From positions 425,001 to 489,000 of the forward strand of contig NC_013851.1 in the NCBI RefSeq assembly GCF_000025485.1: a stretch of DNA of 64,000 bases. The letters are read 5' to 3'. Within the stretch, counting starts at the first letter, position 1. Each line of letters starts with the position of its first letter. Below are positions 254-13,442 of the stretch, in pieces. This DNA comes from Allochromatium vinosum DSM 180 (lineage in GTDB: Bacteria; Pseudomonadota; Gammaproteobacteria; Chromatiales; Chromatiaceae). Under the pieces are notes generated by a model. The model did no database searches and had not been told where the DNA came from. It was given only the letters and a program-made list of their open reading frames with translations. The translations under genes were made by a program, and so were the position numbers.

Positions 254-1444
254 ATGACCACCAAGCTCGCTGCCCGCGTCCAGGCCGTCAAGCCGTCCGC
301 GACCCTTGCCATCACCGCCCGCGCCGCCGCGCTCCGTGCCGAGGGTAAGGATGTGATCGGACTCGGCGTCGGGGAGCCGGATTTCGATACCCCCGAGCAC
401 ATCAAGGCCGCCGCCATCCGCGCCATCGAGTCCGGCTTCACCAAATACACCGCCGTCGACGGCACGCCGGATCTCAAGCGCGCCATCATCGCCAAGTTCC
501 AGCGCGAGAACGGGCTGGACTATGCGCCGAATCAGATCCTGGTCTCGTGCGGCGGCAAGCAGAGTTTCTTCAATCTGGCGCAGGCGCTGCTCGATCCGGG
601 TGACGAGGTGGTGATTCCGGCACCCTATTGGGTGTCCTATCCGGACATGGTGCTGCTGGCCGGCGGCCTGCCTGTGTTCGTGCAGGCGGGCGCAGCGCAG
701 TCGTTCAAGATCACCCCGGCCCAGCTCAAGGGGGCGATGAACGAGAAGACGCGGCTGGTGGTCATCAACAGTCCGTCCAATCCGACCGGGATGGCGTACA
801 GCCGTGAGGAGCTGGAGGCGCTCGGTGAGGTGTTGCGTGATTTCCCGAAGGTGATCATTGCGACCGACGATATGTATGAGCATATCCGTTGGAGTTCGGC
901 GCCTTTCGTGAACATTTTGAATGCCTGTCCGGATCTGGCGCCGCGCACGCTGGTGCTGAACGGGGTGTCGAAGGCGTATTCGATGACGGGCTGGCGGATC
1001 GGCTATGCGGCTGGGCCGGCGCACATCATCAAGGCGATGAACACCATCCAGTCGCAGAGTACGTCCAATCCGACGTCGATCTCGCAGGTGGCGGCGCAGG
1101 TGGCGCTGGACGGGCCGCAGGAGTGCATCGGGGTGATGCTCAAGGCGTTCATGGAGCGGCACGATTTCGTGGTCGAGCGGCTCAACCAGATTCCGGGCAT
1201 CGAGTGTCTGCCGACCGATGGGACGTTCTATGTATTTCCGAAGGTGCAGAAGCTGATCGAACGTCTGGAAGGGGTGAACAACGATCTGGAGCTGGGCGAA
1301 TATCTGATCGAGAAGGCGGGCGTGGCGGTGGTGCCTGGGTCGGCGTTCGGGTTGGGCGGGTATATGCGGTTGTCGATCGCCACCAGCCGCGAGACGCTGG
1401 AACGGGCGTTGGATCGGATCGAGCAGGCAGTAAAAAACGCTTGA
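254..1444 (+). CDS. aspC: Aspartate aminotransferase family, PLP-dependent (fold type I)
   Basis: This is a 396-residue class I/II aminotransferase, the usual family length, expected to move an amino group between aspartate and 2-oxoglutarate in the cytoplasm. Visible family motifs are GVGEPDFDTP near the N-terminus, NSPSNPTG in the substrate/PLP region, and the Schiff-base lysine K240 in NGVSKAYSMTGWRIGY. The open frame extends upstream to 128, but ATG 254 starts the conserved family sequence (TTKLAARVQAVKPS). The stop codon overlaps the -35 hexamer of the next tRNA promoter. Exact substrate range cannot be told from sequence; this subgroup includes aspartate/prephenate aminotransferases. 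Confidence 0.9.
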   Translation: MTTKLAARVQAVKPSATLAITARAAALRAEGKDVIGLGVGEPDFDTPEHIKAAAIRAIESGFTKYTAVDGTPDLKRAIIAKFQRENGLDYAPNQILVSCGGKQSFFNLAQALLDPGDEVVIPAPYWVSYPDMVLLAGGLPVFVQAGAAQSFKITPAQLKGAMNEKTRLVVINSPSNPTGMAYSREELEALGEVLRDFPKVIIATDDMYEHIRWSSAPFVNILNACPDLAPRTLVLNGVSKAYSMTGWRIGYAAGPAHIIKAMNTIQSQSTSNPTSISQVAAQVALDGPQECIGVMLKAFMERHDFVVERLNQIPGIECLPTDGTFYVFPKVQKLIERLEGVNNDLELGEYLIEKAGVAVVPGSAFGLGGYMRLSIATSRETLERALDRIEQAVKNA

Positions 1445-1469
1445 CGCGGGTCGGGTCGGGCACTACCAT
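1441..1469 (+). promoter_or_regulatory. Sigma70-type promoter of the tRNA-Asn gene
   Basis: TTGACG at 1441-1446 and TACCAT at 1464-1469 are separated by exactly 17 bp, placing the start of transcription about 10 nt before the mature tRNA. The -35 element overlaps the TGA stop of the aminotransferase gene. Confidence 0.6.
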
Positions 1470-1485
1470 GCGCGGCTCATGACTT

Positions 1486-1561
1486 TCCCTGGTAGCTCAG
1501 TCGGTAGAGCGGGTGACTGTTAATCACTAGGTCGGCGGTTCGAGCCCGTCCCAGGGAGCCA
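1486..1561 (+). tRNA. tRNA-Asn (anticodon GTT)
   Basis: A 76-nt cloverleaf including an encoded CCA end. The acceptor stem pairs 1486-1492 (TCCCTGG) with 1551-1557 (CCAGGGA). The D arm has GCTC/GAGC, the anticodon GTT is at 1519-1521, and the T loop reads GTTCGAGCC. Discriminator base is G1558. A strong terminator follows 13 nt later, so this is a single-tRNA transcript. Confidence 0.97.
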
Positions 1562-1573
1562 TATAAGTAGAAG

Positions 1574-1610
1574 AAATCCCTGCCTTCTTGCGGAGGCAGG
1601 GATTTTTTTG
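1574..1610 (+). terminator. Rho-independent terminator of tRNA-Asn
   Basis: A 12-bp stem (1574-1585 pairing with 1594-1605, core ATCCCTGCCT/AGGCAGGGAT) closes an 8-nt loop and runs into a seven-T tract at 1603-1609. It ends the tRNA transcript and may also insulate the convergent chemoreceptor gene. Confidence 0.92.
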
Positions 1611-1726
1611 CCTGCCTGATCGCTGGACTCCGGCGCATGTCCGGGACGTTGCCGGATCTTCCACAGTTTGAGATGTAGAGCCGCTTGAAGAGATTGCGGT
1701 GTACGACAAGCATCGCTGACGCAGCT

Positions 1727-3568
1727 CTAGCATCGGAAGCGACTGATGCTATGTGCGAGTTCCGTGGCGCTCTGGGCGATCTGGGTCGAGGTGCTGGCAT
1801 TGGCGTCAGCAGCCGAGGCGGTGTGGTCGGCGATATCGCGGATGGCGACGATATTGCGGTTGATCTCCGTCGCCACATGCGTCTGCTCCTGAACGGCGGC
1901 GGCAATCTGCGTGCTCATCTCCTGGACGCCGGCCATGTCTTCGGTGATGCGCTGGAGAAAAGCGCCCGCCTCGTTGGCTTGGGCCGAACCGGCGAGTCCT
2001 TCTTCGCGACACTCCTGGATCAGGGAGACGATGGTTCCGGTCTTCTGCTGGAGCGCGCTGATGATGCCGCCGATCTCCTCGGTCGCCGTCCGGGTGCGCA
2101 TGGCGAGGGTTCGTACCTCACCGGCGACGACGGCAAAGCCGCGTCCCTGTTCACCCGCGCGGGCGGCTTCGATCGCGGCATTCAGGGCCAGCAGATTGGT
2201 CTGTTCGGCAATGCCGCGAATGACGTCCAGCACTGAGCCGATGGTGGTCGAACTCTGCACCAGTTCGTCCGCCGCCTGGGTGGAGCCGGCCAGACGGGTG
2301 GCCAGGGTGTCGATGCGCTGAATGGTCGTATCGACTTGGACCCGCCCCTGCTGGGCATGGAGGCTCGCCCGGTGTGTCCGGTCGGCGGCTGTCTCGGTGT
2401 TGCGGGCGATCTCCTCGACGGTCGCCACCATCTGGGTGATGGCCGTGGCGAGCTGATCGGCCTCGCTGAGCTGATGGCGGCCGCCGACCGAGGTTTGCTC
2501 TGCATTGGCCGAGAGCTGTGCCAGCGTCTGGCTCAGGTCATCGATGGTGCGCTGACACTGGAGGATCACTCGGGCCACGCTGTCCAGCATGCTGTTGAGA
2601 TGCTCGCCCATCCGGGCCAGCTCGTCCTTGCCGCTGACGTCGAGACGCAGGGTGAGATCGTGATCGTCTGCGATGTTCTGGATGACGCTGACGGCCCGAC
2701 TGATACCGCGGTTGAGACGGCGGGCGATCAGCCACGTCAGCAGCCCCACGAGCACCATCACGGCCAGGCCGAAGGCGGCGAGCCTCCATGCCGCACGGAG
2801 CTCGGCCGACTGAAGATGGGTTTCGAGGTTCGTCCTGATGGTATCGATTTGGGACTGAAGGCCTTGCATCTGAGCGTTCAGATCGGCCCTGAGTCCCTGG
2901 TCGGCGCTGAGTCCGACACGGATCTGGGATTCGACCAGATTCAGGAAATCCTGATGATAGCGCGCCAGGGCACGGGTGACCGTCTCATCGATCTCGGGCC
3001 GGGCGATCAGAGCGGCGTAGTTGGCTTTGAAATTGTCCACATACTTGGTGCTGGATCTCAGCATGAAGTCCTTTTCATCGCGACGCAGTTGCAGGATTCC
3101 GGCCAGCAGGTCGTCGCGCCCTGTCTCCTTGACGCTGGCCTCGGCGTGGTGCACCGCCTCGCGCAGGCTGCCGTAGAGTCCGGACTCGTGATCAAGCCCG
3201 ATCGTCTTGGACTCATTGAAAAACTGTTCGAAGCGCTCCTGGTACTGAGCGATCTCCTGGCGGAGCGCATCGAACTGGGTGGCTGGTATCGCATCCTGGC
3301 CCAGCAGGCCGGCGAGTCGCGCGATATCCTGGTCGAGCGCGCGCAGATGCTCGCGCAGTTCCACGGCATCCCGCTCCGCATGCTGAAAGAAGAAGTCTTG
3401 CCCGTGGCGCTCCACCTTGAGGATCCGGCTGGTAAGCTGTGCGGTCAGTTGCCCGGCCGACGCCAGTCTTTCGAGCTGGAGCCAGGTCCACCAGGACGCC
3501 AGCAAAACGATCAGCAGACTGATGACGGACAGCGCCGAAAGACCAACGAGCTTGTGTTTGATCAGCAT
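1727..3568 (-). CDS. Methyl-accepting chemotaxis protein with HBM-type sensor
   Basis: A 613-residue inner-membrane chemoreceptor. It has an N-terminal transmembrane helix (about 11-31) and a long helical periplasmic region with the FFFQ/DEKDFMLR repeats seen in helical-bimodular (HBM) sensors. A second membrane helix (about 265-285) is followed by HAMP and a cytoplasmic signalling domain. The conserved hairpin tip ([19 protein letters not shown]) that contacts CheA/CheW is intact. No C-terminal CheR-binding pentapeptide is present. An AGGAG ribosome site sits shortly upstream of ATG 3568. No che genes are adjacent. HBM sensors in other bacteria bind carboxylic acids; the ligand here is unknown. 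Confidence 0.92.
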   Translation of the reverse strand: MLIKHKLVGLSALSVISLLIVLLASWWTWLQLERLASAGQLTAQLTSRILKVERHGQDFFFQHAERDAVELREHLRALDQDIARLAGLLGQDAIPATQFDALRQEIAQYQERFEQFFNESKTIGLDHESGLYGSLREAVHHAEASVKETGRDDLLAGILQLRRDEKDFMLRSSTKYVDNFKANYAALIARPEIDETVTRALARYHQDFLNLVESQIRVGLSADQGLRADLNAQMQGLQSQIDTIRTNLETHLQSAELRAAWRLAAFGLAVMVLVGLLTWLIARRLNRGISRAVSVIQNIADDHDLTLRLDVSGKDELARMGEHLNSMLDSVARVILQCQRTIDDLSQTLAQLSANAEQTSVGGRHQLSEADQLATAITQMVATVEEIARNTETAADRTHRASLHAQQGRVQVDTTIQRIDTLATRLAGSTQAADELVQSSTTIGSVLDVIRGIAEQTNLLALNAAIEAARAGEQGRGFAVVAGEVRTLAMRTRTATEEIGGIISALQQKTGTIVSLIQECREEGLAGSAQANEAGAFLQRITEDMAGVQEMSTQIAAAVQEQTHVATEINRNIVAIRDIADHTASAADANASTSTQIAQSATELAHSISRFRC

Positions 3569-3901
3569 GAGGACGCTTCTCCTGATTTATGCGTCATTTG
3601 GTTGGCAGGCGGCTGCCGGAACGATCCTAAATATTTGTATTCCATAGCCTTGTTTGTATATCGAGCGCCCTTGGCCAAAGGCCGGGAGATGGCCGACGCC
3701 CGAGTGCTTTGCGGTTCCACGGCGTGTCTGATGCCGACAGCCAGCAACCTCCGAACGCGCCTGTAGCGCGAGAGCGGCAATCCGGCAACCACATTGCCAT
3801 CCCCTTGGCAATTGTAGCGGAGCGCATCGCGGCCTATGCTGACACTGAATCCGGGGCGGCGCCTTGATTCGAGGTGATTCAGTTGGGATAGCCTGTCCGA
3901 G
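3569..3901. promoter_or_regulatory. Divergent intergenic region, 333 bp, with a 7-bp inverted repeat
   Basis: No convincing gene lies between the divergent chemoreceptor and PocR kinase. An inverted repeat ATTGCCA(6 nt)TGGCAAT sits at 3793-3812 and is the clearest operator-like element. A weak candidate promoter for the kinase is TTGATT (3864-3869), 17 bp, GATAGC (3887-3892), very close to its start codon. No sigma28 chemotaxis promoter was recognised for the receptor. Confidence 0.35.
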
Positions 3902-5284
3902 ATGTATTCGTACACTTTTGGGGCGTGCATGAGACTGATGAAACTCAAGGACCTGGTCGATCTCGACGAATTGCGAGAACTCTGCGAGAGCTTCACCGCC
4001 CTGACCGGTGCCGTGACAGCCGTCCTCGATTTGGACGGGAACATCCTCGTCGCTACGGGGTGGCAGCGGATCTGCACCCAGTTCCACCGGGCACATCCTC
4101 GGACCGCCCTGCGGTGCCGCCAGAGCGATACCATCCTCGCCGGCTGCCTGGGGCGCGGGGAATCCTACAATGTCTATCGCTGCCAGAACGGCTTGGTCGA
4201 CGTCGCCGTCCCGATCCATGTCGGGGGCGAACACGTTGCCAACTTCTTCACCGGGCAGTTCTTCTTCGAGCCACCGGACATCGACTATTTCCGACGTCAG
4301 GCCGAGGAGTTCGGCTTCGACGAAGCCGCCTATCTGGCGGCACTGGCTGAAGCCCCCATCTTCACCGAACGTCAGGTGCGCTCGATGATGGACTTCCTGA
4401 CCCGGCTGGCCCGGGTCATGGGCGAGATGGGGCTGGCTCGGGTGCGGCAACAGGAGGCCAATCGCACACTCCAGCAACACCGCGACCATCTCGAGGAACT
4501 GGTGCAGGCCCGCACGGCGGAACTGTCTTTGGCCAAGGAGCAGGCCGAGGCCGCCAACCGGGCCAAGAGTGCCTTTCTGGCCAACATGAGCCATGAACTG
4601 CGCACGCCGCTCAACGCCATCACTGGGATGGCCTATCTGGTGCGCGCCAGCGGCGTCAGTGTGAAGCAGGCCGGTTGGCTCGACACCCTGGATGGGGCCA
4701 GCCGGCACCTGCTGGAGATCATCAGCGCGATTCTCGAACTCTCCAAGATCGAGGCGGGCGGCATGGAGCTGGACACCGTCCCCATCCGCCTCGACACCCT
4801 GGTGGCGAGTGTCGTTGACACGATCCTCCCCCAGGCCCGGGCGAAACACTTGCACATCGGTCTGGAGCTGGACCCCGTGTCGACCCCACTCATGGGCGAT
4901 CCGGCCCGCTTACGGCAGGCTCTGCTCAACTACGCCGCCAATGCGGTGAAGTTCACCGCAACCGGTTCGGTGACGCTGCGCACCAAGGTCATCGAACAGA
5001 CTCCGGAGTTCGTCATGATGCGCTTCGAAGTCGAGGACACCGGGGTCGGCCTCCCAGCCGATGTCATCGACCGCCTGTTCGAGAATTTCGAGCAGGCCGA
5101 CAATTCCGCCACGCGCCGGTTCGGAGGTACTGGACTCGGTCTGGCCATGACACGTCGCCTGGCCCATCTCATGGGGGGAACGGTGGGTGTCTCCAGCACT
5201 CCGGGTGAAGGCAGCACCTTCTGGTTCACCGCGCGCCTGGGTGCGCGGCCCGCCGCGTTTCAGATTCAGTGCGCCGAACGGTAG
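3902..5284 (+). CDS. PocR-domain sensor histidine kinase
   Basis: A 460-residue cytoplasmic histidine kinase with no predicted membrane helix. Residues about 15-180 form a PocR-type ligand-binding domain (TALTGAVTAVLD, CRQSD, CQNGLVDVAVPI, FFTGQFFF), a fold found in regulators that sense small hydrocarbon derivatives. A coiled linker (190-220) leads to HisKA with phospho-accepting H231 in NMSHELRTPLN. The ATPase domain carries N box NYAANAVKFT, G1 DTGVGLP and G2 GGTGLGLAM. There is no attached receiver and no adjacent response regulator gene, so its partner is elsewhere. Start 3902 is used; ATG 3929 is an alternative that keeps all domains. Confidence 0.85.
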   Translation: MYSYTFGACMRLMKLKDLVDLDELRELCESFTALTGAVTAVLDLDGNILVATGWQRICTQFHRAHPRTALRCRQSDTILAGCLGRGESYNVYRCQNGLVDVAVPIHVGGEHVANFFTGQFFFEPPDIDYFRRQAEEFGFDEAAYLAALAEAPIFTERQVRSMMDFLTRLARVMGEMGLARVRQQEANRTLQQHRDHLEELVQARTAELSLAKEQAEAANRAKSAFLANMSHELRTPLNAITGMAYLVRASGVSVKQAGWLDTLDGASRHLLEIISAILELSKIEAGGMELDTVPIRLDTLVASVVDTILPQARAKHLHIGLELDPVSTPLMGDPARLRQALLNYAANAVKFTATGSVTLRTKVIEQTPEFVMMRFEVEDTGVGLPADVIDRLFENFEQADNSATRRFGGTGLGLAMTRRLAHLMGGTVGVSSTPGEGSTFWFTARLGARPAAFQIQCAER

Positions 5285-5338
5285 ACTGTTGGACGATCAC
5301 GTCGCTCTCTGCATAGACTCCCACAGGCCAAGCGTCAC

Positions 5339-6691
5339 TTGAACTCGAATCACCCAAAGCCTCCAGAGCTCCTGTCCCCGGCCGGCACGTTGCGCAATCT
5401 GCGTTACGCGCTCGCCTATGGTGCGGATGCCATCTACGCCGGTCTGCCGCGCTACAGTCTGCGCGTGCGCAACAACGACTTCGACCTGTCCAATCTGGCC
5501 GTCGGGATCGCCGAGACGCATCGACAGGGCAAGCGGCTCTATCTGGCGGCCAACCTCATGCCGCACGGAGCCAAGCTCAAGACCTTCATCGACGACATGC
5601 GGCCCATCGTCGAGCTGGGGCCGGACGGGCTGATCATGGCTGATCCGGGCCTGATCCTGATGGCGCGTGAGCAGTGGCCGGAGTTGCCGATCCATCTCTC
5701 GGTGCAGGCCAATACGGTCAACGCGGCGGCCGTGCGCTTCTGGCAGCGGCAGGGACTCAAGCGCGTCATCCTCTCGCGCGAACTGTCGCTCTCGGCCATC
5801 GCCGAGATCCGTGACGCCTGTCCCGACATGGAACTCGAAGTCTTCGTCCATGGCGCGCTCTGCATCGCCTATTCGGGGCGCTGTCTGCTCTCGGGTTACT
5901 TCAATCATCGCGATGCCAACCAGGGCGCCTGCACCAACGCCTGTCGTTGGGAATACCGGCTGGGTGTAACGGCCGGCGAGGCCGAAGCCGGGCCGGGGGG
6001 CGAACCCGATCACTGGCACGAGCACGCCGAAACCGAACCGGCTCCAGCGCGCCGCCACACGGCGGCTGAGTCGGTCTATCTACTGGAAGAAGCCCAGCGC
6101 CCCGGCGACTATATGCCGATCTTCGAGGACGAGCACGGCACCTATATCCTCAATTCGCGCGATCTGTGTGCTATCGAGCATGTCGAGCGTCTGGTGGCCA
6201 TGGGGATCGACTGTCTCAAGATCGAGGGGCGCACCAAGTCGCACTACTATGTTGCGCGTGCCACTCAGGCCTATCGCGCCGCCATCGACGATGCCGTGGC
6301 CGGACGGCCCTTCCGGCCCGAACTCAAGCATGATCTGGAAGGGCTGGCCAATCGCGGCTATACCGAAGGCTTCTATCGTCGTCACGCCCCGAGCGAGACC
6401 CAGAACTATGCCTATGGCGCCTCGCGCAACCAGCGCCGGATCTTCGTCGGCGACCTGGGTGATGCCGGGCCGGGTTGGGCCGAAGTCGAGGTCAGGAACC
6501 GCTTCGCGCTCGGTGATACACTGGAGTTGATGACGCCGAACGGCAACCGCACCTTTCGACTGGAGCGCCTGGAGACGCTGGCCGGCGAGCCGCTGGAGGT
6601 GGCGCCCGGCTCAGGCTGGCGAGTCCGTATCCCCGTGCCCGAACCCGTCGGCGACAGCGCCTTGCTGACGCGCGCGCTGGAGCCGGGTTGA
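5339..6691 (+). CDS. trhP: U32 family protein, tRNA 5-hydroxyuridine modification TrhP-like (YegQ)
   Basis: A 450-residue U32 'peptidase' family protein. It begins with the family signature ELLSPAGTLRNLRYALAYGADAIY (read in two parts: ELLSPAGT and AYGADAIYAG). It has the cysteine-rich block around GRCLLSGYFNHRD...GACTNACRW and then KIEGRTKSHYYVA. In E. coli the homologue TrhP takes part in prephenate-dependent hydroxylation of U34 in some tRNAs, and the cysteines may hold an iron-sulfur cluster. The start is a TTG at 5339; no better ATG precedes the conserved ELLSPAG. It is followed closely by the convergent YcgN-like gene. Confidence 0.85.
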   Translation: MNSNHPKPPELLSPAGTLRNLRYALAYGADAIYAGLPRYSLRVRNNDFDLSNLAVGIAETHRQGKRLYLAANLMPHGAKLKTFIDDMRPIVELGPDGLIMADPGLILMAREQWPELPIHLSVQANTVNAAAVRFWQRQGLKRVILSRELSLSAIAEIRDACPDMELEVFVHGALCIAYSGRCLLSGYFNHRDANQGACTNACRWEYRLGVTAGEAEAGPGGEPDHWHEHAETEPAPARRHTAAESVYLLEEAQRPGDYMPIFEDEHGTYILNSRDLCAIEHVERLVAMGIDCLKIEGRTKSHYYVARATQAYRAAIDDAVAGRPFRPELKHDLEGLANRGYTEGFYRRHAPSETQNYAYGASRNQRRIFVGDLGDAGPGWAEVEVRNRFALGDTLELMTPNGNRTFRLERLETLAGEPLEVAPGSGWRVRIPVPEPVGDSALLTRALEPG

Positions 6692-6707
6692 CGCGCGTGG
6701 GTGAACG

Positions 6708-7142
6708 TTAGCGAATCCAGTCGATGAGGTTCATGAGCGGGTCTTCGCCCGTCTCGGGTCCGATGACGCGCCCGCGCACGCTGTGTCCGGCGTCCACGAC
6801 CGAAGCCGGATCGCCGCTGATGAGCGGATGCCAGACCGGCAGCGGCCGACCTTCGGCCAAACGCCGGTAGGCACAGGTCTCCGGCAGCCAGTTGGGCCAG
6901 GCCAGCACCTGGGGGACGATGGTCACGCAATCGGGCATGTGCTGGGCGCGCTCGGCGTACCGACGGCAGCGGCAGGTCTCCAGATCGAGCAGGGCACAGG
7001 CCACGCGCGAATAGACGATGTTTCCGGTCTCTTCATCCTCGAACTTTTCCAGGCAGCACTTGCCGCAGCCGTCGCAGAGCGACTCCCACTGCGCGGCGGT
7101 CAGTTCGGTCAGGGGCGTGGTTTCCCAAAAGCGTTCGTTCAT
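6708..7142 (-). CDS. YcgN/UPF0260 family Fe/Zn-cluster protein
   Basis: A 144-residue cytoplasmic protein of the UPF0260 (YcgN) family, related to the YkgJ zinc/iron-chelating fold. The cysteine motif CDGCGKCC is near residue 25, with further cysteines in CRCRRY and the conserved LPETCAYR segment and C-terminal DPLMNLIDWIR. No enzymatic role is established for the family. Start ATG 7142 (MNERFW) is preferred because it matches family length; an in-frame upstream start at 7175 would add 11 residues. It is divergent from ogt. Confidence 0.82.
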   Translation of the reverse strand: MNERFWETTPLTELTAAQWESLCDGCGKCCLEKFEDEETGNIVYSRVACALLDLETCRCRRYAERAQHMPDCVTIVPQVLAWPNWLPETCAYRRLAEGRPLPVWHPLISGDPASVVDAGHSVRGRVIGPETGEDPLMNLIDWIR

Positions 7143-7282
7143 CGGGCGAGGACTCGTGTTTGGCTTGGCGACCATGGTTCATGGTCGGTGAGGCTGGATC
7201 GGAATGACGATTCTGAGGCCAGGATGTCCGGCCGTCGACCGCATTCGATCTCGATCGACATCGACGTGGAGGAGAACGAGAT

Positions 7283-7804
7283 ATGTGTCATGACGCTCAG
7301 TGCCTGATCGAGACGCCGATCGGCCGGCTGGGCCTGCACTGGCGGGGCGATGTCCTGACCGGCATCGAGCTGGACCCGCTGCCAGCCGATGGCCAGTCAC
7401 CGTCAGAGTGCGAGCCGCCACAGGCGATCACGCGCCAGCTCGACGCCTATTTCCAGGCGCCCGAAACGCGCTTCGAGCTACCGCTGGAGCTGGCCGGCAC
7501 GGCGTTTCAGCAACGGGTGTGGGCGCTGTTGCGCGCCATCCCGGCCGGTCAGACGCGCACCTATGGCGAGATCGCCCGCGAACTCGGCAGTGCGGCGCGC
7601 GCGGTCGGACAGGCCTGCCGTGCCAATCCATGCCCCATCGTGGTGCCCTGTCATCGGGTCGTCGGCCAGCGCGGACTTGGCGGTTTCGCTGGAGACCTGT
7701 CGGGCCGGCGGCTCGCCATCAAGCGCCGGCTGTTGGAGCACGAGGGTATTTTGCGGTATTCGACGCTGGTCGACAGCACGCTCGGACCGACGACGGTCCT
7801 CTGA
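7283..7804 (+). CDS. ogt: Methylated-DNA-[protein]-cysteine S-methyltransferase
   Basis: A 173-residue suicide DNA repair protein that transfers methyl groups from O6-methylguanine to its own cysteine. The active site PCHRVVG is complete with C123, preceded by RTYGEIA and the DNA-binding helix with GSAARAVGQACRANPCP. A strong ribosome site GGAGGAG at 7268-7274 is 8 nt before ATG 7283. The stop lies 7 nt before xerD, so the two are probably cotranscribed. No AdaA-type domain is fused, which supports Ogt rather than Ada. Confidence 0.9.
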   Translation: MCHDAQCLIETPIGRLGLHWRGDVLTGIELDPLPADGQSPSECEPPQAITRQLDAYFQAPETRFELPLELAGTAFQQRVWALLRAIPAGQTRTYGEIARELGSAARAVGQACRANPCPIVVPCHRVVGQRGLGGFAGDLSGRRLAIKRRLLEHEGILRYSTLVDSTLGPTTVL

Positions 7805-7811
7805 AGACAGG

Positions 7812-8705
7812 ATGGACGACCGCGCACTGATCGAAGGCTTCGCCGACGCACTCTGGATGGAACGCGGCCTGAGCCGGAACACGCTCACCGCCTATCAGTC
7901 CGATCTGCGTGCTTTCGCGCACTGGCTGAGCCAGGAGCGCGGGCGCACGCTGATCGCCGCCGAACGGGCCGATCTGCTCGACTATCTGGCCCGGCTCGCC
8001 AAGCAAGGCCGCAACCCGCGCTCCAGTGCACGCCTGCTGTCCTGTCTGCGCCAGTTCTATCAGCATCTGCGCCGGCGCGGTCTGATCGAGGCCGATCCCA
8101 GCGCCCGCGTCGAGGCGCCCAAGCTTGGGCGCCCGCTACCCAAGAGTCTGAGCGAAGCCGATGTCGAAGCCCTGCTCAACGCACCGGATACCGAAGACGC
8201 GCGCGGCCATCGCGACCGCACTATGCTGGAGGTGCTCTATGCCAGCGGTCTGCGCGTGAGCGAACTGGTGAACCTCACCCCCAGTCAGGTCAGCCTGACC
8301 CAGGGCGTGGTGCGCATCCTCGGCAAGGGCGGCAAGGAGCGTCTGGTGCCGCTCGGCGAGGACGCCTGCAACTGGCTGCGCGACTATGTGCGTGGTCCCC
8401 GGTTCGACATCCTCGGCGGCCGGGCCAGCGACTTCCTGTTCCCGACCCGCCGCAGTGACTGCATGACGCGCCAGGCGTTCTGGCAGCTCATCAAGCGCTA
8501 TGCCATTCTGGCCGGGGTCGCCAAACCGCTCTCGCCTCACACCCTGCGCCACGCCTTCGCCACCCATCTGCTCAATCATGGCGCCGATCTGCGCGTGGTG
8601 CAGATGCTGCTCGGCCACAGCGATCTCTCGACCACCCAGATCTACACGCATGTGGCGCGCGAGCGGCTCAAGCAGCTCCATGCCCGTCATCATCCGCGCG
8701 GCTGA
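7812..8705 (+). CDS. xerD: Site-specific tyrosine recombinase XerD
   Basis: A 297-residue tyrosine recombinase, the usual XerD length, which resolves chromosome dimers at dif together with XerC under FtsK control. The N-terminal SAM-like core-binding domain ([20 protein letters not shown]) is followed by the catalytic domain. Catalytic motifs ASGLRVSEL (first Arg), [12 protein letters not shown] (His-x-x-Arg), [14 protein letters not shown] and nucleophile Y278 are all present. Start ATG 7812 is chosen because it opens the conserved domain; the open frame continues upstream through ogt. Confidence 0.93.
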
Positions 8706-8792
8706 CGTGATCGCGTGCGCCAGAGTCGTGTCGAATGGGTTAAGATTCGGGGCATTCTTCACGCAACAGCATTGTCGAGAGTCTGTACATCC

Positions 8793-9275
8793 ATGCCTTC
8801 CTTCGACGTCGTCTCCGAGATCGATCTGCAAGAGGTGCGCAACGCGGTCGATCAGTCCAACCGCGAGATCGGCACCCGCTTCGATTTCAAGGGCGTCAAC
8901 GCCAGTTTCGAGCTGAGCGACGACAAGATCCTGCTCACCGGCGAGCAGGAGTTCCACCTCCAGCAGATGATGGATATCCTGCGCCAGAAACTGGTCAAAC
9001 GCGGGATCGACCTGGCGAGCCTCGACCCCGGCGAACCCGTGACCAACCTGAGCAGTGCGCGTCAGGAGGTCAAGCTCAAGCAGGGCGTCGACTCCGACAC
9101 CGCCAAGACCCTGGTCAAGGCCATCAAGGCGAGCAAGGCCAAGGTGCAGGCCCAGATCCAGGGCGATCAGCTCCGCGTCACCGGCAAGAAGCGCGACGAT
9201 CTCCAGGAGGTCATTGCACTGCTGCGTGGCGGTGACTGGGGGCTGCCCTTACAGTTCAACAACTTCCGCGACTAG
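8793..9275 (+). CDS. yajQ: YajQ family nucleotide-binding protein
   Basis: A 160-residue YajQ protein (DUF520). It starts with the family signature MPSFDVVSE and ends with the conserved PLQFNNFRD. The family binds nucleotides; homologues in Xanthomonas and Pseudomonas bind cyclic di-GMP and affect transcription. Two RRM-like halves are expected. The start at 8793 matches the family; the frame is open upstream. dsbC begins 12 bp after the stop. Confidence 0.93.
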
Positions 9276-9287
9276 GGTTTCGACGCC

Positions 9288-10022
9288 ATGAACAGACTGA
9301 CTCAACGCCTCCTGATCGCCGCCGCCCTGGTCCTGTCCAGCGGCCTGGCGCTCGCCGCGCCCGAGCAGAAGATCCGTGAGGCACTCAAGGAGATCGCTCC
9401 CGATCTCGAGATCAGCAACATCCAGCCCTCGCCGATCAAGGGACTCTACGAGGTCATGGCCGGCACCGATCTGATGTATATCACCGCCGATGGCCGTCAC
9501 TTCATCAGCGGTCACATCGTCGATCTCAAGACGCGCGAGGATCTCACCGAGCCGCGTCTGTCCGAGGCGCGCAAGCGGCTGATCGACCGTATCGGCGAGA
9601 ACGACATGGTCGTCTTCGGCGACAAGGATGCCAAGCACACCATCACCGTCTTCACCGACATCGAGTGCGGCTACTGCCGCAAGCTGCACAGCCAGATCGC
9701 CGACTACGAGAAGGAAGGCATCCGGGTGCGTTACCTGTTCTTCCCGCGTGCCGGCAAGGGCAGTCCGGCCTTCGACGAGGCCGTCTCGGTCTGGTGCGCC
9801 GGTGACGCTGAGGCCCGTCGCACGGCCATGACCAAGGCGAAGGCCGGTGAGCCGGTCGCCTCCAAGACCTGTGACAATCCGGTCGAGGAGCACATGGCAC
9901 TCGGTGCCGATCTCGGATTGCGTGGTACGCCGGCCATCCTCACCGACACCGGCGAACTCATCCCCGGCTATGTCGAGCCCAAGCGTCTGGCTGCTCAGCT
10001 CAACAGCCAGTCCGGTGGCTGA
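9288..10022 (+). CDS. dsbC: Thiol:disulfide interchange protein DsbC
   Basis: A 244-residue periplasmic disulfide isomerase. It has a cleavable signal peptide (LLIAAALVLSSGLALA, cleavage about residue 24), an N-terminal dimerisation domain, and a thioredoxin-fold domain with redox motif CGYC at C127-C130 in FTDIECGYCRKLH. The cis-proline loop is LRGTPAIL. A second cysteine pair (WCAGD and SKTCDNP) matches the structural disulfide of DsbC. DsbD or its equivalent, needed to keep it reduced, is not in the window. Confidence 0.93.
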   Translation: MNRLTQRLLIAAALVLSSGLALAAPEQKIREALKEIAPDLEISNIQPSPIKGLYEVMAGTDLMYITADGRHFISGHIVDLKTREDLTEPRLSEARKRLIDRIGENDMVVFGDKDAKHTITVFTDIECGYCRKLHSQIADYEKEGIRVRYLFFPRAGKGSPAFDEAVSVWCAGDAEARRTAMTKAKAGEPVASKTCDNPVEEHMALGADLGLRGTPAILTDTGELIPGYVEPKRLAAQLNSQSGG

Positions 10023-10049: not shown

Positions 10050-10832
10050 ATGGATGCCAATCCCATCAGTGCCTTCGAACTGGACTTCGCTTGGTGCACC
10101 GATCAGGGACGGGTGCGCCAGCGCAACGAGGACGCCGTGGTCGTGTGTCCCGAGTTCGGTCTGATCGTGGTCGCCGATGGTGTCGGCGGGGCCTCGGCCG
10201 GTCATGTCGCCAGCCGTCTGGCGACCGGGACCATCGCCGAGCGCTTCGGCCGGCGCGTCGGCGCCAGCGCCAATGCCGAGAAGGCGCGGCTCTATCTCCA
10301 GGCCGCCGTCGAGGAGGCCAACATCACCATCCTGCGCCATGCCAAGGAGCATCCCGAGTGCGCGGGAATGGGCACGACCGTGGTCGTCGGTGCGGTCGGG
10401 CAGGACTGGCTGGCCTTCGCCCATGTCGGTGATTCACGTCTCTACCGGCTGCGCGGCGAGGAGCTGGTCCAGCTCTCGCGCGACCATTCGTTCATCCAGG
10501 AGGTCGTGGATCAGGGCTTCTTCAACACGCGCGAGGATGCGCGGCGCTATGGCATCGGAGAGAACATCCTGACCCGCGCCCTGGGGTCGACGCCCAGCGT
10601 GGCGGTGTCGTCCGATGTGATCGCGATCGACAGCGGCGATCTCTTCCTGTTCTGCACCGATGGACTGAGTGGTCTGGTGCCGGACGACTGGCTGAAGCAG
10701 ATCCTGAGTTCGATCGGGGACGACGCACTCGAATCGGCGGCCGATGCCCTGGTGCGGCTGGCCAACGAGCGCGGCGGAAACGACAACATCACGCTCGCTC
10801 TGCTGCGTGTCGGAGAGCGGGTGGCGGTCTGA
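10050..10832 (+). CDS. PP2C-family serine/threonine protein phosphatase
   Basis: A 260-residue metal-dependent Ser/Thr phosphatase. It shows the PP2C motifs in order: DQGRVRQRNEDA near residue 20, VVADGVGG near 44, GMGTTVV, HVGDSRLYR, LFCTDGLSG, and NERGGNDNITLAL near the C-terminus. The aspartates that bind the two Mg/Mn ions are present. This is the Stp1-type single-domain form, and no partner kinase gene is adjacent. ATG 10050 is preferred over the in-frame GTG at 10047. The transporter gene starts 8 nt after the stop. Confidence 0.92.
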   Translation: MDANPISAFELDFAWCTDQGRVRQRNEDAVVVCPEFGLIVVADGVGGASAGHVASRLATGTIAERFGRRVGASANAEKARLYLQAAVEEANITILRHAKEHPECAGMGTTVVVGAVGQDWLAFAHVGDSRLYRLRGEELVQLSRDHSFIQEVVDQGFFNTREDARRYGIGENILTRALGSTPSVAVSSDVIAIDSGDLFLFCTDGLSGLVPDDWLKQILSSIGDDALESAADALVRLANERGGNDNITLALLRVGERVAV

Positions 10833-10839
10833 GGCCGGA

Positions 10840-11613
10840 ATGTTCGACCGACCGACCCGGCTGTTCATCGTTCTCGGCGGTTTCTTCGTCTGTAATGCTC
10901 TGATCGCCGAGTTCCTGGGGGTGAAGATCTTCGCCCTCGAAGCGACCCTGGGACTGGCGCCACTCGACTGGAATCTGTTCGGTCAATCCGGCTCTTTGAG
11001 CTTCACCGCCGGCGTGCTGCTGTGGCCGGTGGTGTTCATCATGACCGACATCATCAACGAGTACTACGGCCGGCGCGGCGTGCGGCTGCTCTCCTATCTG
11101 ACGGTCGGGCTCATCCTCTATGCCTTCGCTTTCGCCTATCTGTCGATCGGGCTTTCGCCGGCCGACTGGTGGGTCGGTATCCAGTCCGGGCAGGGCGTGC
11201 CGGACATGCAGGCGGCCTTCAGCGCCATCTTCGGTCAGGGCATGTGGATCATCGTCGGCTCGGTGGTCGCCTTCCTCATCGGCCAGATCGTCGATGTCAC
11301 TGTCTTCCATCGCATCCGGCGGCTGACCGGCGGGCGCCATGTCTGGGCGCGCGCGACCGGCTCGACCCTGATCTCGCAGTTCATCGACAGCTTTGTGGTG
11401 CTCTATGTCGCCTTCGTGCTCGGGCCGCAGCAATGGCCGATGGAGCTGTTCCTCGCGGTGGGCACGGTGAACTATGTCTACAAGTTCGTCGTCGCCATCG
11501 TGCTCACGCCCCTGATCTATCTCGGGCGTGCGCTGATCGATCGCTATCTGGGTGATGAACTCTCCGGAACGCTTCGCGAACGCGCGGCGGCGGCTGAAGG
11601 GTTGGCCTGGTAG
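10840..11613 (+). CDS. Queuosine precursor transporter, VUT/YhhQ family
   Basis: A 257-residue inner-membrane protein with about six hydrophobic helices. The YhhQ family signatures FNAL-type N-terminus (FFVCNALIAEFLGVK), FIMTDIINEYYGRRG and TGSTLISQFIDSFVV are clear. E. coli YhhQ imports queuine precursors preQ0/preQ1 for tRNA queuosine. Start ATG 10840 opens the first helix; the frame is open upstream inside the phosphatase gene. The 3' end abuts the decayed island. Confidence 0.88.
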   Translation: MFDRPTRLFIVLGGFFVCNALIAEFLGVKIFALEATLGLAPLDWNLFGQSGSLSFTAGVLLWPVVFIMTDIINEYYGRRGVRLLSYLTVGLILYAFAFAYLSIGLSPADWWVGIQSGQGVPDMQAAFSAIFGQGMWIIVGSVVAFLIGQIVDVTVFHRIRRLTGGRHVWARATGSTLISQFIDSFVVLYVAFVLGPQQWPMELFLAVGTVNYVYKFVVAIVLTPLIYLGRALIDRYLGDELSGTLRERAAAAEGLAW

Positions 11614-11744
11614 TGGGCCTCCAGTTCGGGGTGCAGGCCGTGGGCGAGTGGAAAAAGGCGAGTCGCGGTGTCCTGCCGAAGCACTTGGGGCAGCGGCCCA
11701 GGGTAGCGAACGTGATAACCGCTGGTCGGCAGCGTGGCTTCGAT
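11614..11744 (-). other. Orphan reading-frame remnant, unidentified
   Basis: Immediately after an in-frame TAA, the minus strand encodes about 43 residues that look protein-like (TSGYHVRYPGP, PQVLRQDTATRLFPLAHG, HPELEAHYQ) with no start codon or ribosome site. It lies downstream of the 70-aa ORF and ends against the transporter gene. It may be the tail of a lost gene of the same operon. I do not recognise the family. Confidence 0.3.
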
Positions 11745-11771
11745 GGCGGTTTAGAAAGCGGCTTCACGGGG

Positions 11772-11984
11772 TCAGCTCCCGAGTAACCCGATTTCTGTTT
11801 CGTGGTTGCTTGCAGCCGACTGCGGTGCGTCTTCACCTAGCACGACCGGTTTGCCACCTTGCCAGATCACAGCGTACTGACCTAGCCGCCGCTTTCTTTC
11901 CAGTGCCTTGTCCACGGCTTGGCTGAGTGCACCCAGTAGCCGGCGACCTTCCTCCGATGGCATGGTTTTACGATGAATGTTCAT
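11772..11984 (-). CDS. Small 70-residue protein, partner of the zeta-like kinase
   Basis: A 70-residue hydrophilic protein with a central helical stretch ([23 protein letters not shown]). Its ATG (11984) overlaps the stop of the zeta-like kinase in a 4-bp ATGA, so translation is probably coupled. I recall similar short proteins next to zeta-like P-loop kinases, but I cannot search here. An antitoxin or accessory role is an inference from position. The frame is intact although its upstream neighbours are broken. Confidence 0.55.
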
Positions 11985-12559
11985 GATTGTGACTCCTTGA
12001 GCAGACGCTGAAAATGATCCTCGTGCAGGATGTCTCGGTTTTCCGCTTGCTGTTCGAAGACCAGCATCGGGTGTTCTCCAGCGTTCATGAAACAGGTGCA
12101 GCGGTCCACGCGGTGACTGAAGTCGTTGAGTAGGTGGCGCAGGCCGCGTGGAAAGCGCCGTTTGATATCGACCTCTGGAATATCATGTCCGCCGTGGGCC
12201 ACACGTTCGGCGACTCGCAGCTTCGACATTTCCACGCTGGGTAGGGCCAGGTAGATGATTTCCACCCACCAACCCTCCCGCCGTAAGCGTTCGACCGTGC
12301 GTAGATGGGTTCGTCCCGCCAGGGTTGTTTCGAAGGCGAAATCTTTGCGGTCCGTTATGCAGACTTCGATTTCGCGCAGAAAAATCCGGCTGGCGGCCAG
12401 CAACTCGCGTTCGGGTGCGAGCGGTTAAAGTCCGGCGGCGATTAGATCGGCGTTGATGAAGCGGGAGCAGCCGGCAACCTGGGGCAGGTAGTCCAGAGCG
12501 AAGGTGGTCTTACCCGCGCCATTAGGGCCGGCGACGATCCAGCACTTGGGCGTCGTCAT
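11981..12559 (-). pseudogene. Zeta-toxin-like P-loop kinase, broken by an in-frame TAA
   Basis: Read through the stop, this is a 192-residue zeta-type kinase. It has Walker A GPNGAGKT (residues 11-18), then [11 protein letters not shown] and, after the stop, the continuous same-frame [29 protein letters not shown] and the YLALPS beta strand. Codon 45 (12425-12427) is TAA exactly where relatives usually read Ser in AAGLSP; a single C to A change (TCA to TAA) would explain it. The frame is otherwise intact. Zeta kinases phosphorylate UDP-sugars or similar nucleotides. The start overlaps the preceding ORF by ATGA. A sequencing error or rare readthrough cannot be excluded. Confidence 0.75.
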
Positions 12560-12723
12560 GTCCGCATCGCCTCCAGCGGAATATGGCCGTTGACGGAGGC
12601 GGTCATGAGGGTGACGCGGTGTTCTTTGACAAAGGATATGGAATCGCAAACCGCTTTCAACCTAACGCCATCCCGCTCGTCAGGTAGCGAAGCGAGAAGG
12701 TCGATGGCGTTCACTCCATTCAT
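12556..12723 (-). CDS. Small 55-residue protein of the decayed island, unknown
   Basis: A 55-residue ORF starting at ATG 12723 ([16 protein letters not shown]). Its start overlaps the end of the methylase remnant and its stop overlaps the start of the zeta-like kinase, both as 4-bp ATGA overlaps. The sequence has no motif I can name; [21 protein letters not shown] is predicted helical. The overlaps argue that it is translated and worked with the kinase. An antitoxin role would be a guess. A longer form starting at 12747 is possible. Confidence 0.5.
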
Positions 12724-12996
12724 ATGCCCCCCATTCGCCGATCCCATTCACCGCACAGCTTGCGGAACGAGCGACTGCGCTCGAACGCCTGCTGCAAATC
12801 CATGCGCGCAGTGAAAGCCGGCTGGTCGGTAGGTGTCACCTCCCGCAACAGCGCGTCGTGGCGCTTGAGCACGGCGCAGCATGTTCAATGGTAACATCAC
12901 GAGCTCATGCTCATACTGCAGTGGACGATAGGGACCGCATGGCAGGTCGGCCACCGACCAGATGAAGTAGGCGAGTTGATGGAAGCTGGCGCTCAT
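12720..12996 (-). pseudogene. Type I restriction methylase HsdM, N-terminal remnant with frameshift
   Basis: The first frame (from ATG 12996) encodes LAYFIWSVADL...PYRPLQYE...VMLPLNMLRR, the characteristic start of type I DNA methyltransferase subunits. Near 12871-12885 the homology jumps frame: VLKRHDALLREVT, FTARMDLQQAFERS and FRKLCGEWDRRMGG continue in another frame to a TGA at 12720. A loss of about ten bases there fits the missing LDC of the usual LRRLDCVL. Only about 90 codons remain. The catalytic domain, hsdS and hsdR are absent, so no modification activity is possible. Confidence 0.75.
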
Positions 12997-13199
12997 GGAG
13001 GCATCCGGGCAGAATTTCACATGTCTTGTCGATCAGGCGCAGTCTAGCAGGCCGCGATCGGTGCAGTCAGTGTGCCGGCGGCGTGTCTTGCGCACGCTGT
13101 CCGTGAGACAGGCCGCGAATCGGTGCGCGATCCCAGCGCCTTCGACCCGTCTGGACTAAGCTTCCATCAAGGCAATGATTTTTTGACGGAGGAACCGAG

Positions 13200-13442
13200 A
13201 TGATCACCGGAATCGTCGGCCAAGCCGGTTGGATGGGGATGCAGCGGGGTATGGATGGGTTGAGTCAGAACGCCAGCGAGATCGCGGGCGCCGGCGTCAA
13301 GCCGCTGGAAGGCACCACGGTGCGCGACATCAGTGAGCCGCTGATCGATCAGACCGAGAACCTGCGTCAGGTCGAAGCCTCGGCCAAGGTGCTCCAATCC
13401 TCGACCGACGCCTTCGATCATCTGATCGATATCCTCGCCTGA
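13200..13442 (+). CDS. Small 80-residue conserved-looking protein
   Basis: An 80-residue protein with a strong GGAGG ribosome site just before ATG 13200. Its C-terminal third (QTENLRQVEASAKVLQSSTD) resembles the amphipathic tail helix of flagellar rod/hook proteins (pattern ASAKVIQTAD), though it lacks the rest of such a protein. No signal peptide or membrane helix is visible. The last 25 bp overlap the convergent glycosyltransferase gene. Function is unknown. Confidence 0.65.
   Translation: MITGIVGQAGWMGMQRGMDGLSQNASEIAGAGVKPLEGTTVRDISEPLIDQTENLRQVEASAKVLQSSTDAFDHLIDILA

What the first reader, a model, noticed from the sequence alone, without database searches (positions are those of the whole stretch)
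11614..13020. Decayed type I restriction operon carrying an embedded zeta-like kinase cassette
Four minus-strand ORFs are linked by three 4-bp ATGA overlaps: an HsdM N-terminal remnant, a 55-aa ORF, a zeta-type P-loop kinase and a 70-aa ORF. The overlaps show they were one translational unit, so the kinase and small proteins seem to have been built into a restriction operon rather than inserted later. The rest of hsdM and all of hsdS and hsdR are gone. An intact version in a relative could be a defence module that combines DNA modification with a nucleotide-sugar kinase.
Basis: partly seen in the sequence, partly recalled or inferred. Interest (0 to 1): 0.72.

Follow-up and report, generated by a model that had tools for sequence, protein, structure and literature searches.

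The report
Wreck of a nested defence operon
This stretch is the broken remains of a bacterial DNA-defence operon that once carried other defence genes inside it, including a kinase and a small partner protein that in many other bacteria sit together and often lie in such operons.

Summary
The small ORFs and three ATGA overlaps are real, but three labels need changing. (1) The kinase is broken by an in-frame TAA at codon 45. (2) The ORF overlapping the 55-aa ORF is mostly the tail of a HEC-01B/DUF4276 protein, joined to hsdM scraps by a deletion. (3) The 55-aa ORF ends like HsdS, and pieces of hsdR survive downstream. Allochromatium humboldtianum has the same wreck at the same site, less decayed: hsdM remnant, HEC-01A, HEC-01B, 55-aa ORF, open kinase, 70-aa partner. 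Of 8 genus genomes, 3 show an empty site and one has a fuller type I operon there with other cargo between hsdS and hsdR. Elsewhere kinase and partner form a near-obligate pair (105 of 109 loci), right behind hsdS or a type III-like methylase gene in 24 of 109, often without such neighbours. Best reading: a dead type I operon that hosted nested modules; the pair is probably a toxin–antitoxin-like abortive module in the slot that prrC-type and darTG cargo also uses.

The parts
12872..12996 (-). hsdM N-terminal remnant (about 40 aa)
   Evidence: PADLOC MTase_I E 2e-06 on window 12751-12993; same start as HsdM of G111 and G010; similarity to the G010 locus ends at 12872
12834..12871 (-). hsdM scraps: a short internal piece joined to the last codons of HsdM
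   Evidence: compared by eye with the ends of G010 HsdM
12832..12834 (.). deletion junction: 1,753 bp (HEC-01A and most of HEC-01B) present in A. humboldtianum are absent here
12720..12832 (-). HEC-01B (DUF4276) C-terminal remnant
   Evidence: PADLOC HEC-01B E 1.5e-12, profile 160-192 of 197; full length in G046
12556..12723 (-). 55-aa ORF: hsdS remnant carrying an HsdS C-terminus; origin of its first half not shown
   Evidence: partial matches in G151 and G010 HsdS and in an unlabelled 403-aa frame of G061
11981..12559 (-). zeta-like P-loop kinase, broken by TAA at 12427-12425
   Evidence: open 192-aa copy in A. humboldtianum, Pfam Zeta_toxin 32.3 bits on that copy
11772..11984 (-). 70-aa partner of the kinase, frame open
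   Evidence: predicted long helix plus beta hairpin, mean pLDDT 74
11736..11765 (-). hsdR 5' remnant
   Evidence: 90% over 30 bases to G010 hsdR; a stop lies in frame
11600..11687 (-). hsdR remnant, about codons 89-118
   Evidence: 76% to G010 hsdR, compared
11592..13094 (.). extent of the islet absent from the empty site of G048
   Evidence: G+C of the six stretches inside 55-66%, four of them under 60%, against 62-67% for the neighbouring genes listed

Best explanation
The islet is a dead type I restriction-modification operon that once hosted nested defence modules, read from the remnants as hsdM - HEC-01A/HEC-01B - hsdS - zeta-like kinase - small partner - hsdR. Shown: hsd genes survive only as fragments; the wreck is shared with A. 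humboldtianum; relative to that copy the window lacks 1.75 kb (HEC-01A and most of HEC-01B) and has a nonsense codon in the kinase. Shown elsewhere: kinase and partner are a near-obligate, usually overlapping gene pair, often right behind hsdS or a type III-like methylase gene. Inferred: the pair was a toxin-antitoxin-like module in which the partner holds back the kinase; when the balance is upset (for example by phage attack on the host R-M system) the kinase phosphorylates a small metabolite or precursor and stops growth, and the ATGA overlaps keep its dose tied to the gene before it. In the window it no longer works, because the only P-loop lies ahead of the stop.
For: Anatomy. Same site in other states within the genus. 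Long open version in G111. Pairing: partner in 93 of 109 loci by the first test and in 12 of the other 16 with a start farther upstream or behind a split kinase frame; among 14,342 other ORFs of 30-240 aa in the same loci only 14 hits at E<1, these 12 plus one each in L044 and L087; 26 of 29 loci of a second sample. Position: hsdS (18) or type III-like methylase (6) ends within 150 bases of the kinase start in 24 of 109, two of them with gaps of 100-134 bases. Fold: zeta/PezT/AvrRxo1-like, model pLDDT 94. Slot used by others: passages of PMC12255303 (darTG2 between hsdS and hsdR) and PMC3874165 (prrC embedded in the EcoprrI operon; that it lies between hsdS and hsdR is recalled); Synechocystis pSYSG: hsdS, nucleotidyltransferase, zeta family protein, 59 aa, DUF4433, macro domain, with an HsdR-type HMM hit behind.
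Against: No toxicity, neutralisation or phage data. The order with HEC-01 ahead of hsdS is read from remnants; no intact copy of exactly that order was found. Most loci outside the window's order showed no R-M neighbours (R-M genes near in 14 of 79 of the genome contigs set; in 5 of 29 of the second sample within 1.5 kb). The first half of the 55-aa ORF matched only the two Allochromatium copies in full. The partner has no fold match at E <= 0.001 and by sequence only short helix matches, mostly to designed helical proteins (best E 0.00027), so nothing points to a known antitoxin.
Confidence: 0.8

Rival explanations
1. The kinase-partner pair is a guard of the R-M system like PrrC: it stays silent while the R-M complex is whole and fires when a phage protein blocks it.
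For: Recurrent place behind hsdS or the methylase gene and, where seen, ahead of the restriction gene; prrC and darTG2 are embedded in type I operons.
Against: Many pairs stand without R-M genes, so they must be controlled without one; the small partner is an obvious candidate silencer.
Confidence: 0.2
2. The kinase-partner pair is a passenger: a solitary addiction module that settles in transcribed operons where it does no harm, with no functional tie to restriction.
For: 21 changes of R-M context on the kinase tree; copies between unrelated genes (named by eye).
Against: Same relative position and overlaps behind type I and type III-like genes; context is clustered on the tree (0 of 500 shuffles as low, though near-copies add to that).
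Confidence: 0.3
3. The remnant is a working minimal operon: the 55-aa and 70-aa ORFs are kept for a new role.
For: Both frames are open and nearly identical in two species; 16 differences between 11600 and 13100 against about 6-7% in the next few hundred bases on either side.
Against: Kinase, hsdM, hsdR and HEC-01B are all broken in the window; the same high identity covers the broken parts, so it points to recent exchange, not to selection on the ORFs.
Confidence: 0.05

Closest known systems
Type I R-M operons with embedded cargo (EcoprrI with prrC; the RRDM island with darTG2)
   Same: Extra effector genes inside the operon, in relatives of this locus between hsdS and hsdR (passages of PMC3874165 and PMC12255303).
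   Different: Effector is a zeta-like kinase with a small partner; in the window all core genes are dead.
HEC-01 (PADLOC models HEC-01A and HEC-01B)
   Same: Both genes full length in A. humboldtianum (E 4.9e-183 and 2.1e-89).
   Different: In the window only the tail of HEC-01B is left.
Epsilon-zeta / PezAT toxin-antitoxin systems and AvrRxo1-ORF1/ORF2
   Same: Kinase fold and a small neighbour gene.
   Different: Partner is encoded after the kinase and shows no fold match and only short helix matches by sequence; in epsilon-zeta the antitoxin comes first (recalled); substrate unknown.
Synechocystis pSYSG defence island
   Same: hsdS, then further small genes, a zeta family protein and a 59-aa protein; the island is described in PMC4963859 (passages).
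   Different: Also carries DUF4433, macro-domain and nucleotidyltransferase genes; the passages report a test of another pair there, Ssr8013-Slr8014.

Membership tests
Type I R-M system | hsdM, hsdS and hsdR homology at the locus | tested here: met
   fragments of all three
Type I R-M system | all three genes intact | tested here: not met
   only fragments remain
HEC-01 | HEC-01A and HEC-01B both present | tested here: not met
   window has only the HEC-01B tail; both full length in A. humboldtianum
Zeta_toxin (PF06414) kinases | profile score above Pfam's cut-off | tested here: inconclusive
   window C-terminal piece 20.7 against 22.3; the open relative 32.3, above it
Zeta_toxin (PF06414) kinases | Walker A and the rest of the kinase in one open frame | tested here: not met
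   TAA at codon 45, behind the P-loop
Zeta_toxin (PF06414) kinases | phosphorylates UDP-N-acetylglucosamine (recalled) | not testable with these tools
   fold alone does not tell
Type II toxin-antitoxin pair | two small adjacent genes that occur together | tested here: met
   105 of 109 loci, 26 of 29 in a second sample
Type II toxin-antitoxin pair | one product stops growth and the other neutralises it | not testable with these tools
   needs expression
PrrC-type R-M guard | gene between hsdS and hsdR (position of prrC recalled) | tested here: met
   in relatives such as G111, G151 and L063, not in the window itself where the genes are remnants
PrrC-type R-M guard | anticodon nuclease of the PrrC kind | tested here: not met
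   zeta-like kinase fold instead

The most novel reading that the evidence does not exclude
Kinase plus small helix-hairpin partner is an undescribed toxin-antitoxin family that restriction operons of several types (type I, type III-like, DrmD-helicase/type III-methylase) have captured repeatedly at one position, right behind the specificity or methylase gene and ahead of the restriction gene, as a second line that fires when restriction fails.
Probability: 0.25. Interest if true: 0.65.

Novelty: new member of a known kind. Interest (0 to 1): 0.4.

Why it matters
Nesting of effector modules in type I operons is already reported for prrC and darTG2. Here the same site in one genus is seen empty, with a fuller type I operon carrying other cargo, and as a shared wreck, which makes gain, exchange of cargo and loss visible. 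If the kinase-partner pair proves to be a toxin-antitoxin system tied to restriction, it would add a metabolite-kinase effector to the known R-M-linked abortive systems.

Tried and rejected
Rejected: an open kinase (TAA); the 55-aa ORF as part of the cassette (its C-terminus is HsdS-like); a cassette confined to type I operons; a first impression that G038 and G099 hold Hma operons (PADLOC scores both helicases best as DrmD, and G038's methylase best as type III; G099's methylase was not scanned). HMM labels for R-M genes were built here from a few seeds, so distant R-M genes may be missed and the R-M counts are lower bounds. My note implies an intact R-M operon in G010; its hsdS region holds a repeated hsdM end and its frame was not checked in full, so I call it fuller, not intact.

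Rows left out: L047 (same place as G046) from the counts; seven loci with split or cut kinases from the tree, and L032 and the window piece from its labels; adjacent upstream proteins came from 41 of 102 loci with a recognised P-loop (55 without an adjacent ORF, 6 too short to tell); downstream proteins were 63 of the 66 that passed the distance rule (L032, L091 and L095 not sent); the kinase alignment for the fold held 38 of the 48 rows first sent, one dropped for its stop codon and nine without a recorded reason.

Papers: I saw passages of five papers and otherwise only search listings. No title or abstract start listed in searches speaks of this pair (two returned nothing), but two papers listed hold 'zeta toxin', 'type I restriction' and 'hsdS' in their text and were not read, nor were the other listed papers. 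The library is open-licence PMC only. A preprint on antiviral defences embedded in prokaryotic immune systems (Payne and others) is cited in PMC12255303; no preprints are held and it was not read.

Full report
What is there. The window lies in contig 1 of a 3.67-Mb genome. On the minus strand between 13020 and 11614 the ORFs and three ATGA overlaps of the finding exist. The kinase frame is broken by TAA at 12427-12425; its only P-loop lies ahead of that stop, so the 147-aa remainder should not work as a kinase on its own.

Relabelling. Scanned piece by piece, the ORF that overlaps the 55-aa ORF ends as the C-terminus of a HEC-01B protein (PADLOC E 1.5e-12), window 12751-12993 has an HsdM-like start (E 2e-06), and the 147-aa piece matches Zeta_toxin just under Pfam's cut-off. 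The 55-aa ORF ends like HsdS of relatives. Among 195 genomes of the order its full-length matches are the window and G046; three other genomes match in part (residues 22-54, 25-54 and 15-53), two of them at the end of the HsdS of their locus (G151, G010) and one in an unlabelled 403-aa frame (G061). Its first half looks a little like an HsdS start by eye; that is not shown.

The relative. It has the same islet between the same neighbours: hsdM remnant, HEC-01A (401 aa, E 4.9e-183), HEC-01B (195 aa, E 2.1e-89; Pfam DUF4276), 55-aa ORF, open 192-aa kinase, 70-aa ORF. The window lacks 1,753 bp of it. From 11600 to 13200 the two are 97-100% identical in each 200-base stretch; outside it the 200-base stretches range from 77 to 100%, most between 88 and 98%. 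There are 16 differences between 11600 and 13100, and about 6-7% in the few hundred bases on either side. A decaying locus should not be more alike than its flanks by descent alone, so I infer lateral exchange after the hsd genes had already broken.

The site. All 8 genus genomes searched, the window's own included, hold the neighbour gene at 10841-11613. Beside the window and G046, G048 and G056 have both neighbours without the islet, G007 likewise with a weaker alignment, G010 has a type I operon there, and for G118 and G011 the other flank was not found. In G010 the order is hsdM, a SLFN-like gene, an hsdS region, an HTH-like and a PIN-like gene (these names by eye), hsdR. Window fragments 11600-11687 and 11736-11765 match that hsdR.

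Elsewhere. Of 195 genomes of the order, 54 (own included) have a kinase match at E <= 1e-5. I examined 109 loci: the 29 returned for the best matches of that search beside the own one, one plasmid, and 79 of the 80 from genome contigs. The small partner follows in 105 of 109; L045 ends in the kinase, and L113, L116 and L118 showed none. A second sample, 29 loci from 398 genomes of the phylum, gave 26 of 29. R-M genes on the same strand lie within 10 kb upstream or 4.5 kb downstream, as far as the stretch reaches, in 40 of 109: 25 of 29, 1 of 1 and 14 of 79. An hsdS or methylase gene ends within 150 bases of the kinase start in 24: 18 of 29, 0 of 1 and 6 of 79. In the second sample R-M genes showed within 1.5 kb in 5 of 29. 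The order set was chosen by similarity to the window, so its high share should not be generalised, and several stretches are short or cut. Pfam on adjacent upstream proteins: Methylase_S 10 and N6_N4_Mtase 6 of 41; on downstream proteins: ResIII 14 and HSDR_N 9 of 63. For background, Methylase_S was found in 131 of 195 genomes of the order, with 3 matches in the window's own 3.67 Mb, so immediate neighbourhood this often looks far above chance in that order; I computed no formal probability. On a quick tree of 103 kinases the R-M label needs 21 changes against a shuffled mean of about 30, with 0 of 500 shuffles as low; well-supported branches force at least 5, and only 16 of 100 inner branches are well supported. 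So the pair is partly loyal to R-M surroundings and has probably still moved in or out many times.

Protein form. The A. humboldtianum kinase is predicted with mean pLDDT 94; the best PDB fold matches are AvrRxo1-ORF1, PezT and zeta, then polynucleotide kinases. By sequence the kinase profile finds only P-loop stretches and a weak Pnkp1 match in the PDB. The partner is predicted as a helix and a hairpin, mean pLDDT 74, without fold match at E <= 0.001; by sequence it finds short helix stretches, mostly of designed proteins, best E 0.00027, which I take for chance.

What is known. Passages of PMC12255303 describe darTG2 between hsdS and hsdR, another gene pair in that place in four genomes, and call the site a potential recombination hotspot. 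Passages of PMC3874165 and PMC12707154 describe prrC embedded in a type IC locus, and guard systems. Passages of PMC4963859 describe the pSYSG defence island. Searches named under Tried and rejected listed nothing on this kinase-partner pair, with the limits stated there. The kind is therefore known; this pair looks like a further member of it, and the window's copy is dead.

Noticed in passing
window 11600-13200 against L032: The islet differs by about 1% from A. humboldtianum while the bases next to it differ by about 6-7%, with the change close to the islet's edges; suggests lateral exchange of an already decayed locus.
   Followed up: partly
L145 (G010) 4222-9783: Same chromosomal site with a type I operon whose hsdS-hsdR slot holds an HTH-like and a PIN-like gene (named by eye); a second copy of the hsdM end lies at 7955-8329.
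   Followed up: partly
L034 (G111) 10494-12437: PtuA/PtuB (Septu) genes nested between hsdS and the kinase in an otherwise open type I operon.
   Followed up: partly
L046 (pSYSG) 1177-5303: hsdS followed by a nucleotidyltransferase, the kinase pair, and DUF4433 and macro-domain genes: several cargo modules in one row.
   Followed up: partly
L044, about 0.8 kb behind the kinase; L087, about 1.7 kb behind: A further ORF that matches the partner profile, away from the kinase stop.
   Followed up: no
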